Source: a virus
Length of the DNA: 26,422 bases
Strand: one strand, 5' to 3'
IMG/VR virus record: IMGVR_UViG_3300046692_000594
Span: 1-26,422 of that record
Part shown: piece by piece, positions 7,505-23,032 of the stretch
Position numbering within the stretch: position 1 is the first letter of the stretch
How the letters are laid out: each line of letters opens with the position of its first letter
Program-made: the position numbers and the translations under genes
Notes under the pieces: generated by a model
What the model saw: only the letters and a program-made list of their open reading frames with translations
Told to the model about the DNA's origin: nothing
The model's database searches: none

Positions 7505-7828
7505 ATGATTGTTGCCGCTTCGCTTGCGATGATGCTTGCCGCCGCGCCTTCCGCCGATGCCGTGGGCACCGGGCGCAAGGAATTTTCCAAATGCCTGAGC
7601 GCCCAGACGCAGCCCGCGCTGGAAAAGAAATTATCCGTCGGCGATTTCCAGTCCGCGATCAAAAGCGCCTGCGCCGACAAGGAAGCCGCCTTCCGCAACG
7701 CCATCATCGCTCAGGACAAGGCCGACAAAATGTCCGACGCCGCCGCCAGCAGCGACGCCGACGACCAGATCTCCGAATATGTCGACAAGATCACCGGCGA
7801 ATATGAAGAAAGCAGCCGCCCGAACTGA
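7505..7828 (+). CDS. Small secreted hypothetical protein inserted between gp8 and gp9
   Basis: The 107-aa product begins with a likely signal peptide (MIVAASLAMMLAAAPSADA, cleavage near residue 19). The mature part is helical and charged, with two Cys residues (about 30 and 56) that could form a disulfide in the periplasm. I do not recognise the family. It has a GGAGAGG ribosome site five bases before ATG. It is the only plus-strand gene in the tail half of the cluster, and a 29-bp-arm palindrome follows its stop by four bases, possibly acting as its transcript end. It looks like a host gene placed in the cluster; a role in particle production is not indicated. Confidence 0.75.
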   Translation: MIVAASLAMMLAAAPSADAVGTGRKEFSKCLSAQTQPALEKKLSVGDFQSAIKSACADKEAAFRNAIIAQDKADKMSDAAASSDADDQISEYVDKITGEYEESSRPN

Positions 7829-7832
7829 CATC

Positions 7833-7902
7833 CGTCATTGCGAGCGGAGCGAAGCAATCCACTGGCGCACCCATGGATTGCTTCGCTCCGCTCGCAATGA
7901 CG
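7833..7902. repeat. Dispersed palindrome, copy 2 (29-bp arms)
   Basis: Perfect 29-bp arms (7833-7861, 7874-7902) around a 12-base loop. It matches copy 1 at 2735-2804 except that the arm has GCGGAGC where copy 1 has GCGCAGC, with the matching change in the opposite arm. It lies between convergent genes, the secreted protein and gp8, and could terminate both. Confidence 0.95.
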
Positions 7903-7918
7903 ACCATGGTTGTCGGCT

Positions 7919-8311
7919 TCACTCCCGCACCGCCCGCACCCGATAATCCACAACGCCACGCCACCCCTGCGCGCCACTCCGCGCCACCCGCGACCGCAAC
8001 AACCGCGCACTCACGATCCGCCAGCCCTGCTCCACGCCCGCAGCGACGATCGCCGGATCGACCCGCCCGATCATCCCGGCCAGCCGCCCCGGCGTCTCGT
8101 CCGCCACCACCAGCCCGATGGTCAGCCGCAATTCGCGCCCCTCGACATCCTTGCCGCCCCAGTCGCTCCCCAGACATTCGCCGACAAAGCCACAGGGTGC
8201 CGCCGCCCGCACCGGCTCGCCATCATAGATCCCATTGACCAGCGCCATCAGCGCTGCATCCGCCCGCAACGCCGCGATCACCGCCGCGCGCACCGCCACT
8301 TCCGCGCTCAT
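7919..8311 (-). CDS. Tail terminator, DUF3168 family (GTA gp8)
   Basis: This 130-aa protein begins MSAEVAVRAAVIAALRADAA and continues LMALVNGIYDGEP, the standard DUF3168 start, with a later GRELRLTIGLVV strand. The family caps the tail tube and joins it to the head connector. The ATG at 8311 overlaps the upstream stop as ATGA (8308-8311), which settles the start against a 14-residue longer frame. It faces the plus-strand secreted-protein gene convergently. Confidence 0.87.
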   Translation of the reverse strand: MSAEVAVRAAVIAALRADAALMALVNGIYDGEPVRAAAPCGFVGECLGSDWGGKDVEGRELRLTIGLVVADETPGRLAGMIGRVDPAIVAAGVEQGWRIVSARLLRSRVARSGAQGWRGVVDYRVRAVRE

Positions 8312-8496
8312 CGCCCTCTCCCCGCTTCCCGCAGCGCCAGATCGCGCAGCCATCGCGCCCGCAGCCCCCGCCCGGCCGCCACGACATCCTCGCCCTCGAC
8401 CAGCGCGTCGACGCCCTCGTCCCGCAAAGCCGCCACGATCGCCACCCGCCGCATCGCCGCCCGCGCCTCCACCAGCCGCACCAGCGCCGCCCTCAT
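8308..8496 (-). CDS. 62-aa ORF in the gp7 (head-completion) position
   Basis: The product (MRAALVRLVEARAAMRRVAI then GVDALVEGEDVVAAGRGLRA) is a small, basic, probably helix-strand-helix protein. It overlaps gp6 (8493-8496) and gp8 (8308-8311), each by ATGA, which is strong evidence that it is a real, coupled gene. It sits where RcGTA has gp7, a head-tail joining protein near 110 aa, but I see no clear match to that family. A diverged or minimal stopper protein is the best inference. Confidence 0.68.
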   Translation of the reverse strand: MRAALVRLVEARAAMRRVAIVAALRDEGVDALVEGEDVVAAGRGLRARWLRDLALREAGRGR

Positions 8497-12617: not shown

Positions 12618-12690
12618 TCCTCGCCCCTCCAGGGGAGAGGATACGAAGTCTTGGCAGCTTGCTGACTAGACGCAGTTGGAGAGGGGGCTG
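12618..12690. repeat. Dispersed repeat upstream of the capsid gene
   Basis: Related to 11314-11388: TCCTCGCCCCT/AGGGGAGAGGA hairpin, then GATACGAAGTCTTGGC, GACTAGACGCAGTTGGAGA and GGGGG. Both are in the same orientation and enclose gp5. Confidence 0.75.
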
Positions 12691-12715
12691 CCCACACGAA
12701 AGCGCAGAGCAAACA

Positions 12716-12785
12716 CGCCAATTCCCTCCGCGTCCCCGCGCCTCCGCGCGAACAAAAACCTCAGCGCCCTCTGCGCCTCTGCGCG
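12716..12785. repeat. Dispersed repeat (Cys/Arg-type 'CTCCGCG' and 'CTCTGCG' units)
   Basis: Contains CGCGTCCCCGCGCCTCCGCG followed by CTCTGCGCCTCTGCGCGAAC. The same units recur at 14243-14306, 14914-14940, 21691-21714 and 24301-24458. It lies upstream of the dioxygenase gene and supplies a spurious N-terminal extension to its frame. Confidence 0.8.
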
Positions 12786-12828
12786 AACCCACTGGACAGC
12801 CCCGCCACCCGCATTGGATAGCAGCATC

Positions 12829-13503
12829 ATGCTTCTCACCCTCGTCCCCCACGGCGCACACCACATCCCCGCCGCGCTCCCCGAAACCGCGCTCGCCACC
12901 ATCGAAGGCGCCCTCGCAGCTCTCCCCACCGACCGGGCAGGCCAGCGCCTCGCCAGCCTGCCCGCCCTCGCCGACATGCTGCACCCCAGCGGCGCAATCG
13001 GCCGCCACCCCGCCGCCCATCTGGGCAAGGCCGCCAAAGCCGTCCGCGCGATCTTCTTCGACAAGAGCGAAGCCACCAACTGGTCGCTCGGCTGGCATCA
13101 GGACCGCACCATCGCCGTGCAGCAGCGCATCGACACGCCGGGCTTCGGCCCCTGGACGCTCAAGTCCGGCATCCAGCACGTCGCCCCGCCGCAATCCCTG
13201 CTCGACCGGATGCTGACCCTGCGCATCCATCTCGATCCCGTCGACGCAGACAATGCCCCGCTGCTGATCGCACCCGGCTCCCACCGCCACGGCCGCGTCC
13301 CCGAAACAGACGTCGCCGCCCTCGTCGCTACCTGCGGCACCCATGCCTGCCTCGCCCGACGCGGCGACATCTGGCTCTACGCCACCCCGATCCTCCACGC
13401 CTCCGACGCCGCCACCAACCCTCGCCACCGCCGCATCCTGCAACTCGACTATAGCGCCGACCCGCTACCGGCCGCGCTGGAATGGCTGGGAGTCAGCAAA
13501 TGA
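12829..13503 (+). CDS. Phytanoyl-CoA dioxygenase (PhyH)-like Fe(II)/2-oxoglutarate oxygenase
   Basis: The 224-aa product carries the facial triad of the PhyH family: H90-x-D92 in LGWHQDRTI and a distal His, H190, in LYATPILHASDA. R201/R202 in PRHRRILQLDY, about ten residues later, is the expected 2-oxoglutarate-binding Arg. APGSHRHGR at about 149-156 is also typical of the fold. The substrate cannot be read from the sequence. It would be a cytoplasmic hydroxylase using Fe(II), O2 and 2-oxoglutarate. I chose ATG 12829 because the earlier codons are repeat-derived. It overlaps the next membrane-protein gene as ATGA, so the two form an operon on the strand opposite to the GTA genes, between gp4 and gp5. 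Confidence 0.85.
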   Translation: MLLTLVPHGAHHIPAALPETALATIEGALAALPTDRAGQRLASLPALADMLHPSGAIGRHPAAHLGKAAKAVRAIFFDKSEATNWSLGWHQDRTIAVQQRIDTPGFGPWTLKSGIQHVAPPQSLLDRMLTLRIHLDPVDADNAPLLIAPGSHRHGRVPETDVAALVATCGTHACLARRGDIWLYATPILHASDAATNPRHRRILQLDYSADPLPAALEWLGVSK

Positions 13504-16178: not shown

Positions 16179-16709
16179 TCAGACCGTCCGCAACTGATCC
16201 CGCATATCTATGGCTGTCTGCAGGGAAAGGAACATGCCCACCCCGTGATTATAGGGTTCAAAACCCAGGGCCGCGTAAAATCCCGCAGCCTTCTTGCTCA
16301 CCGGCGTCAGGATCAGCAGCGGCAAACCGATCTTCTCGCCATGGCCGGCAAAATCGGAAATGAGCTTGGCCATGATCGTCGATCCAATGCCGCGATTTTG
16401 GCGATCCTGCGCAACCGCCAGATAGACCATGCTCAGACAGGGGAAATAATTGGGATTACCGAAAAATGGCACATAGCGAACGCCCGGCAGAAGACGGGCC
16501 TCTTCGATCACAGTGGACAGTGCGTAGAAGCCGACGGGCTTTGCCCTATCGTCTCCTTCATAGGCACATGTGACGATATGCTTTCTGTTTCCATGATCTT
16601 TGAGCGATTTCGACCGAAACCATGTATCGATTTCTTGGACACCGCATCGGAAAGAAGCGATATTCGTTTCGGCACCATGCTCTCGAAAAGAAATCGACCC
16701 TTCCGACAC
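16179..16709 (-). CDS. GNAT N-acetyltransferase, TacT/KacT toxin-like
   Basis: The 176-aa product is a GNAT fold with the acetyl-CoA motif QNRGIGS within VYLAVAQDRQNRGIGSTIM and the C-terminal AAGFYAALGFEPY motif. The N-terminal FRCGVQEIDTWFRSKSLKDH resembles the 'FdcG...LD.fl...A' start of toxin GNATs such as TacT, AtaT and KacT, which acetylate aminoacyl-tRNA. The start is GTG at 16709, six bases after the stop of a 54-aa ORF. Partner size, order and spacing match a toxin-antitoxin operon. Base composition is lower in GC than the GTA genes, consistent with acquisition. An ordinary GNAT with another substrate remains possible. Confidence 0.78.
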   Translation of the reverse strand: MSEGSISFREHGAETNIASFRCGVQEIDTWFRSKSLKDHGNRKHIVTCAYEGDDRAKPVGFYALSTVIEEARLLPGVRYVPFFGNPNYFPCLSMVYLAVAQDRQNRGIGSTIMAKLISDFAGHGEKIGLPLLILTPVSKKAAGFYAALGFEPYNHGVGMFLSLQTAIDMRDQLRTV

Positions 16710-16715
16710 AATCGC

Positions 16716-16880
16716 TCAGCGCGCGACCTTGGCATTATAAATCGCAATCAACTTGCGCATGGCCGGCGTCAAACCGCCCCGTTTGGCATGCGCCTTCGCT
16801 CCCACTTTGAAGGCTATCGCCGTGCCTTTGTCGGACAAGGGTTTGGAAGCCACGAACGACTCTTTTCTAATGACTGCCAC
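16716..16880 (-). CDS. 54-aa basic protein upstream of the GNAT, putative antitoxin
   Basis: The ORF starts at GTG 16880 with a perfect GGAGG five bases before, and ends TGA six bases before the GNAT start. The sequence opens MAVIRKESFVASKPLSDKG (GTG read as Met) and ends KRGGLTPAMRKLIAIYNAKV. It is basic. It does not look like the roughly 90-aa DUF1778 ribbon-helix-helix antitoxin normally paired with TacT-type toxins, so it would be a short or novel antitoxin, or a truncated one. The ribosome site, spacing and shared strand support translation as the first gene of the pair. Confidence 0.6.
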   Translation of the reverse strand: MAVIRKESFVASKPLSDKGTAIAFKVGAKAHAKRGGLTPAMRKLIAIYNAKVAR

Positions 16881-17006
16881 GTGAACCTCCTTCCCGCTAT
16901 CCCAACGCCGACAAAAGGCCGGGCCTTTACGTCAACCCAAATAGCAATTTCGCGAAGAAGCGACAAGCATTCCCCCACTTGCCAAGAATGCTTGCAGCTC
17001 AACCCG

Positions 17007-18328: not shown

Positions 18329-20092
18329 CTACTCGTCGGAAAAACCGACCTTGAACGCCTTCGTTATGAAAATTCCGGCACTGAATTTATCCGGGTTCTT
18401 GCCTCCCATTTGATCGGAGAAGCGCAATCCCGCATGAATGCCGCCCTTGTCATCGGTAATAAACAGAACCGGGACATCATAGGCAAACTGGCCGCTATTT
18501 ACGTCCAGCGTCAATTTGGGGGCAATGGCCAGCCCCCCTGCAAACGGCACCCCGGCAAAATGAACCTTGCTCATCAGGCCCAGCCGATAGAATGTGCTTT
18601 CCTCCGGAGCCGCGATGTTCACCTTTGAACAGGCGATCACGTTACCGGGAAGACAGCGTATCTGATCCTCGCTACCCTTGGCATATTTATATTCCTGGCC
18701 GATCTCGACAAGAGCGGCGCCATAAAGGCGTGGCACTTGCGGCGCTAGACTGTCCCACTGTCCGGGCTTGGCAGACGACCGATAGATTCCGAACTTGCCG
18801 ATGTGCGCATTTGCGCTCCAGACCAGCTTTGCGGTTTCATGCTCCGCATAGCCAAATGGTTTCGTCGCATCCAAATCCTCTGCCGCCGTGCTTCCGAACC
18901 GGCTATAGGTAAAGGCTTGCCATCCCAGCTTGCCGTCAATGCCCCAGTCCCAATCCGGCGCTGCGTCGGAAGCCCAAAGGGCCTTATCATAAATATTCTT
19001 AATCGCCTTGTCTGGATTGTTGGCAGCCCAGCGCCCCAACGCCTCCCCGGAACATAATGCCGCCTTTTGCTCTGCATCGGGTTTTGTTTCTTTGCCATCC
19101 TGCTCGGCAATGCATTTTTTTACCAACTCGGCCTGCCCCCTCGCCAGGGAACTGCGAATAGCATCGGGTGAGCGAGGCCTGTAACCGATACGTGTCAGGC
19201 CCAGGCTAAACTGGACATTATCTTCAAAGCCCTTGCCCTCTCCGCCTGAATAGAGCGCGCCAAAACTGTCCGCCGCCTTCGCTATGATGCCTCCCGACAA
19301 GGTATAGGAATAGCCCTTGTCGCCCGTTACGGACACGCCTTCATCCGAACACGTCTTCTGCTTTTCTTTGCAGCGCAAATACTTCCCGGCCCATGAACGC
19401 GCAAGTTTGATCCCAATCTCGGTCTTGTCGTCCTGAGCCGAGAGGCTGACACCGCCCAGGCCGGAAGCATCGCTGCGATCAAACAGATATGAACTGGCCG
19501 CATTCGCCGCCCTCTCTACCAACGCCCATCCGACCGGCCGGGGGGCCTTGATAGATTCATCATTCTCTTTCGGTTCGGGGCCGTAAAAACTGTTAGGCGC
19601 CTTCAGAAGCGTAGTAAGTTTGGTGCCAAATAGCGTGCAATCGGAAACAACATCGTTCCCTGCCGGCTTGCCTTCGCCTTTATCAGCGGCACAAGCGCTC
19701 GGGTCCGCCACCGCCTGCTGTTCTGCAACTGGCCTCGCCTGATCCAGACGAGCAAGTATCTGCTGGAAATTGTTCAAGGCAATGGCCAGCGCCTGAGATT
19801 TCCCCTCAAGAGCACGGACCTCATCGGCCAGTTGCGACTGCATTGCGGCAAGATTGACCGTCGACGCATCCTGGCGGCCAAGCACTTCCATGAGTTGCCG
19901 CCTGACCCCAAGCTCACGATTTATCTGCTCGGCCTCCCCTTCCTTCTGCTTGATCTGTTGTTCGATAAAATCTCTCTGTTCCTGCCAGCCCCCGGCTTGC
20001 ACAGGCACCCCGCTCGTTTCCTGCGCAGCAATAGCCTGAATTGGGCAGGCAAAATAAGCAGCTACCAAGATCATGGAAAAATTTGATTTCAT
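18329..20092 (-). CDS. Orphan exported coiled-coil/beta-rich protein (587 aa)
   Basis: I do not recognise this protein. From ATG 20092 (GGGGGG ribosome site) it has a signal peptide ending near residue 23 (ACPIQAIAA), a charged Gln/Glu-rich coiled coil at about 36-122, a disordered stretch with a Cys pair, and then about 400 residues of alternating beta-type sequence ending FITKAFKVGFSDE. Repeated amphipathic strands (FSLGLTRIGYRPRS, ETAKLVWSANAHIGKFGIYR, LTLDVNSGQFAYDVPVLFIT) suggest a beta-barrel or beta-sandwich in the outer membrane. Codon use is more AT-rich than the adjacent terminase. It is transcribed in the GTA direction directly after gp2 (224 bases). Longer frames to 20185 add 31 residues without a signal sequence and are less likely. 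Confidence 0.7.
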   Translation of the reverse strand: MKSNFSMILVAAYFACPIQAIAAQETSGVPVQAGGWQEQRDFIEQQIKQKEGEAEQINRELGVRRQLMEVLGRQDASTVNLAAMQSQLADEVRALEGKSQALAIALNNFQQILARLDQARPVAEQQAVADPSACAADKGEGKPAGNDVVSDCTLFGTKLTTLLKAPNSFYGPEPKENDESIKAPRPVGWALVERAANAASSYLFDRSDASGLGGVSLSAQDDKTEIGIKLARSWAGKYLRCKEKQKTCSDEGVSVTGDKGYSYTLSGGIIAKAADSFGALYSGGEGKGFEDNVQFSLGLTRIGYRPRSPDAIRSSLARGQAELVKKCIAEQDGKETKPDAEQKAALCSGEALGRWAANNPDKAIKNIYDKALWASDAAPDWDWGIDGKLGWQAFTYSRFGSTAAEDLDATKPFGYAEHETAKLVWSANAHIGKFGIYRSSAKPGQWDSLAPQVPRLYGAALVEIGQEYKYAKGSEDQIRCLPGNVIACSKVNIAAPEESTFYRLGLMSKVHFAGVPFAGGLAIAPKLTLDVNSGQFAYDVPVLFITDDKGGIHAGLRFSDQMGGKNPDKFSAGIFITKAFKVGFSDE

Positions 20093-20316
20093 ATCGCCCC
20101 CCGACGAATCCATAAAATGGTCAAAATCATCAGATTTCACCATCAGTAGAGGCAATATTACATAACGATATTTAAAAGTGAACAATGATAATGTCGAATT
20201 AGGCCCAAACTGATGGTTGCAAAGTTAGACCGTTTTTTCAGTCCGCTGGCGCCAGACGAATCCCATGCACGGGGCTTTGACCGCCTGAATTGCATCCCAT
20301 GTCCTGCTGATCCCCC

Positions 20317-21719: not shown

Positions 21720-23032
21720 TTATTTACGAGGCGCCATGCCTCCAAAAGTGACGAGACTCTCCGCCCCATCCTTCGCCACAGCCGCCACGCCGATGAAATG
21801 ATCATCGACCACGATATCCTTCAGCACCGTCTCCGTCGCGCCGGTCACGACCCGGCTGTCGCTCCAGTCCTGCGCATCGGCCCGCCGCCAATAGACCTTA
21901 TAAGCCGCCGCCCCCGGCACCGCGTCCCAGAAGACCCGCGTATCCATGGAGAGCGCGCCATCCAGCGACACGCTCGCAGGCGCCGCCGGCGCATCCGCCA
22001 GTGCCCGCAGCGTCGCGACATTCAGCGCCGTCACTTTCGCCAGATAGGGAAAGTCCATCCCCTCGACCGTATCGCCATAGACCCGGCCATTTTCGGTCCG
22101 CAGATCCTGATGCTGCCGGTCATAATTTTCGATCCCCACCGAAAAGCGCACCGCCGGAAAGCCCAGGTCCAGGAAGGGCGAATGATCGCCCCCGCGCCCG
22201 AACCGGTCGAACCGCCGCACCGCAAACACGTCCAGCCCGATCGCCGGATCGGCCTTGGCGATCCCGTCAATCTTCTTGGCCAGCGCGCGCGAAGGGCCAT
22301 CATCCCCCCGCCGATCGCCCGGCGGGTCAGATTGGCCTTCCCATCCTCCGAAAAGCGGATGCCTTCGGAAAAGACGCGCACCCGGTCCGCAACCCGCTGC
22401 CCATTCTGGCCCAGCGTATTGCCGACAATGTCATTGTTCAGCATCGCCCGCACCTGCCAGCCGCGCGCCTTGGCCGTGGCCGCCAGCAACTTCCCGCCCC
22501 ACAGCCCCTGTTCCTCGCCCGACAGCAGTGCGTAGACGATCGTCCCGTCAAACTTCTCGCCCGCCAGCACCCGCGCCGCCTCGATCACCAGCGCCGTGCC
22601 CGACGCATTGTCATTCGCGCCCGGCGCATCGCTGGTAATGTTCATCACATCCGTCACGCGGCTGTCGATATGCCCGGCGACGATCACCACCTGAGACGGA
22701 TCACCGGTCCCCTTCTGGATCGCCAGCACATCCACCACCTCGACCCCGTCGGGCGCACGCGGCCCGGTAAAGCGATCCGCGATCGTCTCCACCGTCAAGC
22801 ACCCGCCGCACGCCTTGCTGATCTTCTGAAACTCGCCCGCGCCCCAAGTCCGCGCCGCCCCGATCCCCCGCTTGGGATCAGTCGCCGAAGACAGCGTATG
22901 CCGCGTGCCGAAACTCACCAGCTTCTCCACCGTCGCCTTCATCCGCACCGGATCGGGCGCCTTGGTTTCGGCAAGAGCAGGTTGCGCAAGGGCGGTAGCC
23001 GACAGGGCGGCGATCAGGATCATCTTGGTCAT
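21720..23032 (-). pseudogene. M28 family metallopeptidase with C-terminal beta domain, frameshifted
   Basis: The 5' frame (from 23032) encodes a signal peptide (MTKMILIAALSATALAQPAL), then the zinc-peptidase core with H121 (VAGHID), D141 (GANDNASG), E173/E174 (LSGEEQG) and D201 (LNNDIVG). It goes out of frame at a run of six C on the plus strand (22304-22309). Restoring one base continues with GDDGPSRALAKKIDGIAKAD and the last zinc His (GGDHSPFLDLG), then a C-terminal fibronectin-III-like module (ALSMDTRVFWDAVPGAAAYK) to TAA at 21720; the repaired protein would be 437 aa. These are secreted aminopeptidases. The single-base loss at a homopolymer could be a true mutation, a phase-variable site or a sequencing error. 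It precedes the gp2 terminator. Confidence 0.83.

What the first reader, a model, noticed from the sequence alone, without database searches (positions are those of the whole stretch)
16179..16880. GNAT toxin with a non-standard 54-aa partner
A 54-aa ORF with GGAGG and a GTG start ends six bases before a TacT-like GNAT that also uses GTG. The partner is basic and does not resemble DUF1778 antitoxins, so this may be a minimal or new antitoxin type. Lower GC and placement between gp2 and gp3 suggest acquisition, and a toxin could help stabilise the cluster or act in producer/recipient selection.
Basis: partly seen in the sequence, partly recalled or inferred. Interest (0 to 1): 0.55.

Follow-up and report, generated by a model that had tools for sequence, protein, structure and literature searches.

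The report
Acetyltransferase toxin with tiny new antitoxin
A bacterial gene-transfer-particle cluster carries a small swappable cassette that encodes a protein-synthesis-poisoning type of acetyltransferase together with an unusually short, strongly basic partner protein that is probably its antidote and belongs to no described family.

Summary
The 54-aa ORF (16880-16716, minus strand) and the GNAT ORF (16709-16179) are real genes. The 54-aa frame is under strong purifying selection (dN/dS 0.04-0.13) and lies beside the GNAT at 6 of 6 loci found, two of them outside GTA clusters, in prophage-like regions, at 30-36% identity. The GNAT model matches the tRNA-acetylating toxins TacT/KacT/AtaT: the first 38 PDB hits are all of this family. 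All 55 other related GNAT loci examined have a DUF1778 (TacA-like) ORF upstream. This clade has none, and the partner matches no Pfam, NCBIfam, PHROG, PADLOC or PDB entry. The cassette (about 0.83 kb, GC 0.54) sits in an insertion hotspot between a glycine-zipper gene and the portal gene of a Sphingobium-type GTA cluster. It is more diverged than its flanks, so it has probably been exchanged. One genome with near-identical flanks holds a different TacT-like GNAT with a different 60-aa basic partner. Best reading: a type II-like toxin-antitoxin module with a mini-antitoxin, of a class that Bikmetov et al. 2022 noticed but left untested. Toxicity and neutralisation are inferred. The GNAT is damaged at 2 of 6 loci and no docking was predicted. 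A role in stabilising the GTA is untested.

The parts
16716..16880 (-). 54-aa basic partner, proposed mini-antitoxin (GTG start; stop included)
   Evidence: conserved frame, purifying selection, pI 11.2; no family match
16179..16709 (-). 176-aa GNAT, TacT/KacT/AtaT-like proposed toxin (GTG start, 6 nt after the partner's stop; stop included)
   Evidence: Pfam GNAT, nearest solved structures are GNAT toxins, FY (144-145) and QxxGxG (104-109) motifs present
16886..16892 (-). strong Shine-Dalgarno-like AAGGAGG of the partner
   Evidence: no comparable site in the 18 nt before the GNAT start printed
16938..16966 (-). promoter-like site TTGTCG - 17 nt - TATTTG, 57 nt before the partner's start codon
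   Evidence: a similar arrangement at the other five loci of the family (weakest in L002); motif chosen after viewing the sequences; the generic sigma-70 scan did not list it
16964..16994 (-). inverted repeat (CAAGCATTC / GAATGCTTG arms) just upstream of the promoter-like site; role unknown, perhaps terminator of the glycine-zipper gene
   Evidence: read from the sequence printed; similar hairpins with other sequences at L003, L002, L017, L018, none obvious at L046
16161..16177 (-). terminator-like hairpin just after the GNAT stop (resembles the ancestral glycine-zipper/portal spacer seen at empty sites)
16180..17006 (-). approximate extent of the inserted cassette (from the glycine-zipper stop codon to the GNAT end)
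   Evidence: distance from glycine-zipper to portal is 108-179 nt in 16 of 30 loci and about 0.9 kb here

Best explanation
The pair is an acquired, self-contained toxin-antitoxin module. The GNAT is most likely a TacT/AtaT-type toxin that acetylates the amino group of charged tRNA and so blocks translation (inferred from fold and motifs). The 54-aa basic protein is most likely its antitoxin: made in excess from a strong ribosome-binding site, it would bind and silence the weakly, probably coupled-translated GNAT (inferred). It replaces the DUF1778 ribbon-helix-helix antitoxin of the other members. The module lies in prophage-like regions and GTA clusters, and at this GTA site it has been inserted and exchanged (shown by comparative sequence). 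Shown: gene pair, conservation, selection, toxin-family fold, absence of a detectable DUF1778, insertion hotspot. Inferred: toxicity, tRNA substrate, neutralisation by binding, loss upon partner degradation.
For: GNAT: phmmer hits are KacT, AtaT and TacT-family toxins; the AlphaFold model's first 38 Foldseek hits in PDB are all GNAT toxins or toxin complexes (best E 4e-13, TMt 0.88; first other protein E 2e-7). The FY pair (144-145) and Q-x-x-G-x-G are kept; Y145 falls on the KacT tyrosine position's alignment (entry 5xun is a Y145F mutant). Partner: independent searches with partner and with GNAT land side by side in G001, G002, G480 and G401, and in L046 and L002; frame intact at 6 of 6 loci; dN/dS 0.04-0.13. 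Strong SD before the partner, no clear SD and GTG/TTG starts for the GNAT at 5 of 6 loci (the sixth has GCG), gaps 3-16 nt. Discriminator: 55 of 55 other GNAT loci (26, 29; a few are near-duplicates) have a DUF1778-like ORF upstream (own HMM made from three of them); 17 of 17 scanned proteins, 16 of them from these loci, hit PF08681. GNAT tree: the 6 short-partner GNATs and 52 DUF1778 GNATs are split by one branch, 99/96.
Against: No toxicity or binding data. GNAT is interrupted by TAA in L003 (a MAG contig whose own title gives coverage 2.65, so possibly a sequence error) and its start codon reads GCG in L002/L004, while the partner stays intact. In L017 and L018 the first glycine of QxxGxG is replaced (K, N). 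The partner had low confidence in the joined model (pLDDT mostly under 50, no usable docking) and only moderate confidence alone (67.9), with no PDB match at E <= 0.001. The family is rare: 1 of 397 family genomes matched strongly (two more at E 0.006-0.008 look like chance), 4 of 94 genus genomes clearly (7 at E <= 0.05), 1 of 385 class and 1 of 396 order genomes, these last two being the search centres.
Confidence: 0.62

Rival explanations
1. The GNAT is an ordinary, non-toxic acetyltransferase (peptide, small-molecule or ribosomal-protein) whose conserved basic 54-aa neighbour is its substrate or adaptor, not an antidote. The partner would be held by selection because it is the acetylation target.
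For: The partner is strongly basic at all ten short-partner loci measured (pI 9.8-11.5). The clade lies off the DUF1778 GNATs. Bikmetov et al. 2022 name a different physiological function as one option for acetyltransferases outside the DUF1778 clade.
Against: Fold and sequence neighbours are specifically GNAT toxins rather than general acetyltransferases; the two-gene order, spacing and translation signals are those of TA operons; a second, unrelated short basic partner with another TacT-like GNAT occupies the same site.
Confidence: 0.2
2. The partner is a cut-down DUF1778 antitoxin that keeps only the toxin-binding tail, or a very divergent RHH protein of Arc size, so this is a canonical TacAT module in disguise.
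For: Length and predicted helix-turn-helix order (helices 17-33 and 39-53) would fit either a neutralising tail or the helical part of an RHH fold. By eye the C-terminal L-x-x-L stretch resembles the DUF1778 tail. P0002, the Methylobacterium partner, aligns to the DUF1778 tail in hhalign, but with probability 2% only.
Against: hhalign of the partner family against 17 DUF1778 proteins: probability 1%, ten aligned columns at the wrong end. No Pfam RHH hit. No strand in the model and no PDB fold match.
Confidence: 0.13
3. A decaying genomic passenger: an acquired TA cassette on the way to loss, without present function in the GTA cluster.
For: GNAT interrupted or start-less at 2 of 4 GTA-site copies; 16 of 30 related sites are near-empty.
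Against: The window copy is intact and the GNAT pairs also show purifying selection (dN/dS 0.08-0.17); the partner is intact everywhere.
Confidence: 0.15

Closest known systems
TacAT / KacAT / AtaRT (GNAT-DUF1778 type II TA)
   Same: GNAT toxin fold, antitoxin-first operon, short spacing, FY and acetyl-CoA motifs.
   Different: Antitoxin is 54 aa instead of about 90-110, no DUF1778/RHH detectable, pI 11.2 against a median of 8.2 (5.4-10.5) for 17 DUF1778 proteins; the GNAT lies on the other side of a 99/96 branch.
GNAT-DUF4065 (VcaAT) and GNAT-Xre (PacTA)
   Same: Known cases where a GNAT toxin has another antitoxin than DUF1778 (passages of PMC9177977 and PMC9561280).
   Different: Those partners carry DUF4065 or HTH domains; ours matches no domain.
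Acetyltransferases with divergent short ORFs outside the 'true TA clade' (Bikmetov et al. 2022, PMC9177977, Discussion section read)
   Same: TacT-related GNAT preceded by a short ORF without a recognisable DNA-binding domain; probably the same class.
   Different: There only mentioned and left as a speculation; no families, selection tests or GTA location are given in the two sections read.

Membership tests
GNAT toxin family (TacT/KacT/AtaT-like) | GNAT domain with nearest similarity to known GNAT toxins | tested here: met
   Pfam GNAT above cut-off; PDB neighbours by sequence and fold are GNAT toxins.
GNAT toxin family (TacT/KacT/AtaT-like) | acetyl-CoA loop Q/R-x-x-G-x-G/A and FY tyrosine (motif names recalled) | tested here: met
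   Q104-x-x-G107-x-G109 and F144-Y145 in the window protein; in L017 and L018 the first G is K or N.
GNAT toxin family (TacT/KacT/AtaT-like) | growth arrest by acetylation of aminoacyl-tRNA | not testable with these tools
   Needs expression and LC/MS of tRNA.
GNAT-DUF1778 (TacAT) module | DUF1778/TacA1 (PF08681) ribbon-helix-helix antitoxin upstream | tested here: not met
   no Pfam hit for the partners of window, L046, L017 and L018; hhalign probability 1%. The 55 comparison loci do have one.
type II toxin-antitoxin module | two adjacent co-directional small genes, conserved as a pair | tested here: met
   6 of 6 loci.
type II toxin-antitoxin module | antitoxin protein binds and neutralises the toxin | not testable with these tools
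   The joined AlphaFold model gave the partner low confidence; no interface can be read from it.
type II toxin-antitoxin module | own transcription signals / autoregulation | tested here: inconclusive
   Promoter-like site at similar distance at the six loci, weakest in L002, chosen post hoc; no operator test.

The most novel reading that the evidence does not exclude
TacT-like toxins guarded by tiny basic proteins form a separate class of toxin-antitoxin module, with at least two unrelated antitoxin families, that moves between prophages and gene transfer agent clusters as plug-in cassettes. GTA clusters recruit and swap them at fixed sites, either as addiction or immunity devices that protect the GTA locus or because GTA-mediated transfer and recombination spreads them.
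Probability: 0.22. Interest if true: 0.75.

Novelty: new variant of a known kind. Interest (0 to 1): 0.56.

Why it matters
It puts a defined, testable family behind a question left open by Bikmetov et al. 2022: do TacT-like acetyltransferases with unrecognised short neighbours form toxin-antitoxin pairs? A 54-aa neutraliser without a recognisable DNA-binding domain would separate toxin neutralisation from autoregulation in this large toxin family. Finding such cassettes exchanged inside GTA clusters would make these clusters sites of selfish or defensive gene turnover rather than only conserved structural operons.

Tried and rejected
Partner as DUF1778 tail or RHH: profile comparison gave no support; kept only as a rival. 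Partner fold: Foldseek found nothing at E <= 0.001 and a PDB profile search found nothing at E <= 10. Partner relatives on plasmids: none; DNA of the region on plasmids: none. Defence annotation: no PADLOC hit. Joined partner-GNAT model: no confident interface. Read-through or programmed fusion: partner and GNAT share a frame in window, L003 and L018 but not in L017, L046 or L002 (start coordinates), so it is not conserved. Generic promoter scan did not list the promoter-like site.

Corrections: mis-oriented several comparison loci and was replaced. In one search the portal row of L003 was out of frame; one search replaces the portal values. Tree had long branches; a thinned tree with more rows keeps the short-partner-1 group (100/99) and places the second short-partner type separately (100/100). 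For one search I dropped up to 24 listed near-duplicate rows before building; the comparison sets share at least one locus (L021/L067).

Full report
What is there. The window is an IMG/VR record that holds a GTA-like structural cluster on the minus strand: terminase, portal, prohead protease, capsid, head-tail connector, DUF2460 protein and an Rcc01698-like protein. The two ORFs of the finding are as described, and GC of 16180-17006 is 0.54 against 0.66 for the window. Between terminase and the pair lie a 618-aa ORF without a confident family, a nitroreductase and a glycine-zipper-like protein.

The 54-aa ORF is a gene. Homologues of partner and GNAT lie side by side at five further loci: L003 (MAG SKS3.bin69; G002), L002/L004 (Sphingobium sp. 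YR768; G001), L046 (IMG/VR), L017 (G480) and L018 (G401). In G480 and G401 the partner and the GNAT were found by separate searches. Partner identity to the window is 96, 74, 80, 35 and 30%. Among the four GTA-site copies dN/dS is 0.04-0.13 for the partner and 0.08-0.17 for the GNAT.

The GNAT is of the toxin kind. Sequence neighbours in PDB are KacT, AtaT and other toxins of this family. A model made from the joined chain had good confidence over the GNAT half (pLDDT blocks mostly 77-92, one block 59), and its first 38 Foldseek hits are all GNAT toxins or their complexes; the first other protein is human Naa60, five orders of magnitude weaker. The QxxGxG loop and the FY pair are present.

The partner is not the standard antitoxin. 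It matches nothing in Pfam, NCBIfam, PHROGs, PADLOC or PDB. As a control, each of the 55 other GNAT loci fetched was examined: all 55 have a DUF1778-like ORF upstream by an HMM of my own built from three of them. Of 17 proteins scanned, 16 representatives of these and one mycobacteriophage protein, all 17 hit PF08681. In a tree of 58 GNATs the six with short partners fall on one side of a 99/96 branch. One of the six is a Methylobacterium plasmid GNAT whose 70-aa partner is also unmatched by Pfam above cut-off.

Operon signals. The partner has a strong AAGGAGG-like site, while the 18 nt before the GNAT start hold no comparable site. GNAT starts are GTG or TTG at 5 of 6 loci and the gaps are 3-16 nt. 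That is what a toxin-antitoxin operon needs: much antidote, little toxin. A promoter-like TTGTCG/A-N16-18-TAT site is found 56-68 nt before the partner at the loci of the family, weakest in L002; the motif was picked after looking, so the shuffle fractions printed are too favourable.

Insertion and exchange. In the genus, 72 of 94 genomes have the glycine-zipper gene. Of the 30 best of these loci, the distance from it to the portal gene is 108-179 nt in 16, 239-445 nt in 5 and over 700 nt in 8; one has no portal match in reach. The eight long ones hold the present pair (2), another GNAT pair (1), a 209-aa ORF, a 180-aa ORF on the other strand, a 340-aa ORF and two inserts with no clear gene. 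Flank genes of window, L003, L002, L046 and L087 differ by dS 0.12-0.38, but the cassettes by 0.42-0.46 (window-L003) and 0.9-2.2 (the other pairs). So the cassettes have a history of their own, most simply repeated replacement at one site.

A second mini-partner. L087 (G470), whose portal is 100% and nitroreductase 98% identical to the window's over the compared parts, carries at this place a different TacT-like GNAT with a 60-aa basic partner (MAVHSSSFGG...), unmatched in Pfam. That partner recurs at 54% identity in G479, where the pair lies inside the GTA cluster between prohead protease and capsid. A 57-aa ORF of like position, and similar by eye, precedes a 38% identical GNAT on a Rahnella plasmid. 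In the wider tree the two kinds of short-partner GNAT are separate.

Where the module comes from. In G480 the pair is 3 to 6 kb from a YqaJ recombinase and SSB, and next to a gene with weak S24 and Cro/C1-type repressor matches; in G401 it is about 1 kb from a tyrosine integrase. I infer that prophage-like elements carry the module and that GTA clusters took it up from them.

How it probably works. Inferred: the GNAT acetylates charged tRNA and stops translation; the basic 54-aa protein binds and silences it; when partner supply fails, the toxin acts. Binding, target and trigger are not shown. The model gives the partner two helices (17-33 and 39-53) with moderate to low confidence and no docking, and no known fold. 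Against a strict addiction role: the GNAT is interrupted in L003 (low-coverage MAG) and lacks a start codon in L002/L004, while the partner is intact.

What is known. Bikmetov et al. 2022 (PMC9177977; passages and sections 16 and 17 read) state that acetyltransferases outside the DUF1778 clade are preceded by divergent short ORFs without DNA-binding domains and may pair with unidentified antitoxins. GNAT-DUF4065 and GNAT-Xre pairs are known alternatives. Searches for GTA with toxin-antitoxin or GNAT terms (listings read, and passages of PMC13236601) showed no report of such a cassette in a GTA cluster. Passages of PMC9836097 on GTA clusters in Sphingomonadales did not mention one. The library holds open-licence papers only.

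Noticed in passing
L087:1938-2662; L142 (G479) 7749-8469: A second kind of TacT-like GNAT with a 60-aa basic partner sits in GTA clusters at two different places (before portal; between prohead protease and capsid).
   Followed up: partly
window 17007-16070 and loci L086-L115: The glycine-zipper/portal spacer of Sphingobium-type GTA clusters is an insertion hotspot with various cargo (209-aa, 180-aa and 340-aa ORFs in L098, L102, L110).
   Followed up: partly
L017 and L018, upstream of the partner: Both prophage-like copies have a TTACGTA...TACGTAA inverted repeat just before the promoter-like site; operator, terminator or integration site unknown.
   Followed up: no
window 12676-13503 (+): A PhyH-like dioxygenase ORF (PF05721) on the opposite strand inside the GTA cluster, overlapping a minus-strand ORF between capsid and protease genes.
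   Followed up: no
window 21720-23032 (-): Peptidase M28 homology in two overlapping minus-strand ORFs (22031-23032 and 21720-22229), which looks like a frameshifted gene.
   Followed up: no
window 18329-20185 (-): A 618-aa low-GC ORF without a confident family, also inserted between terminase and portal genes.
   Followed up: no
L050:2741-3480 (Methylobacterium plasmid): A GNAT of the same side of the tree with a 70-aa partner overlapping its start, between insertion sequences; possibly a third mini-partner family.
   Followed up: partly
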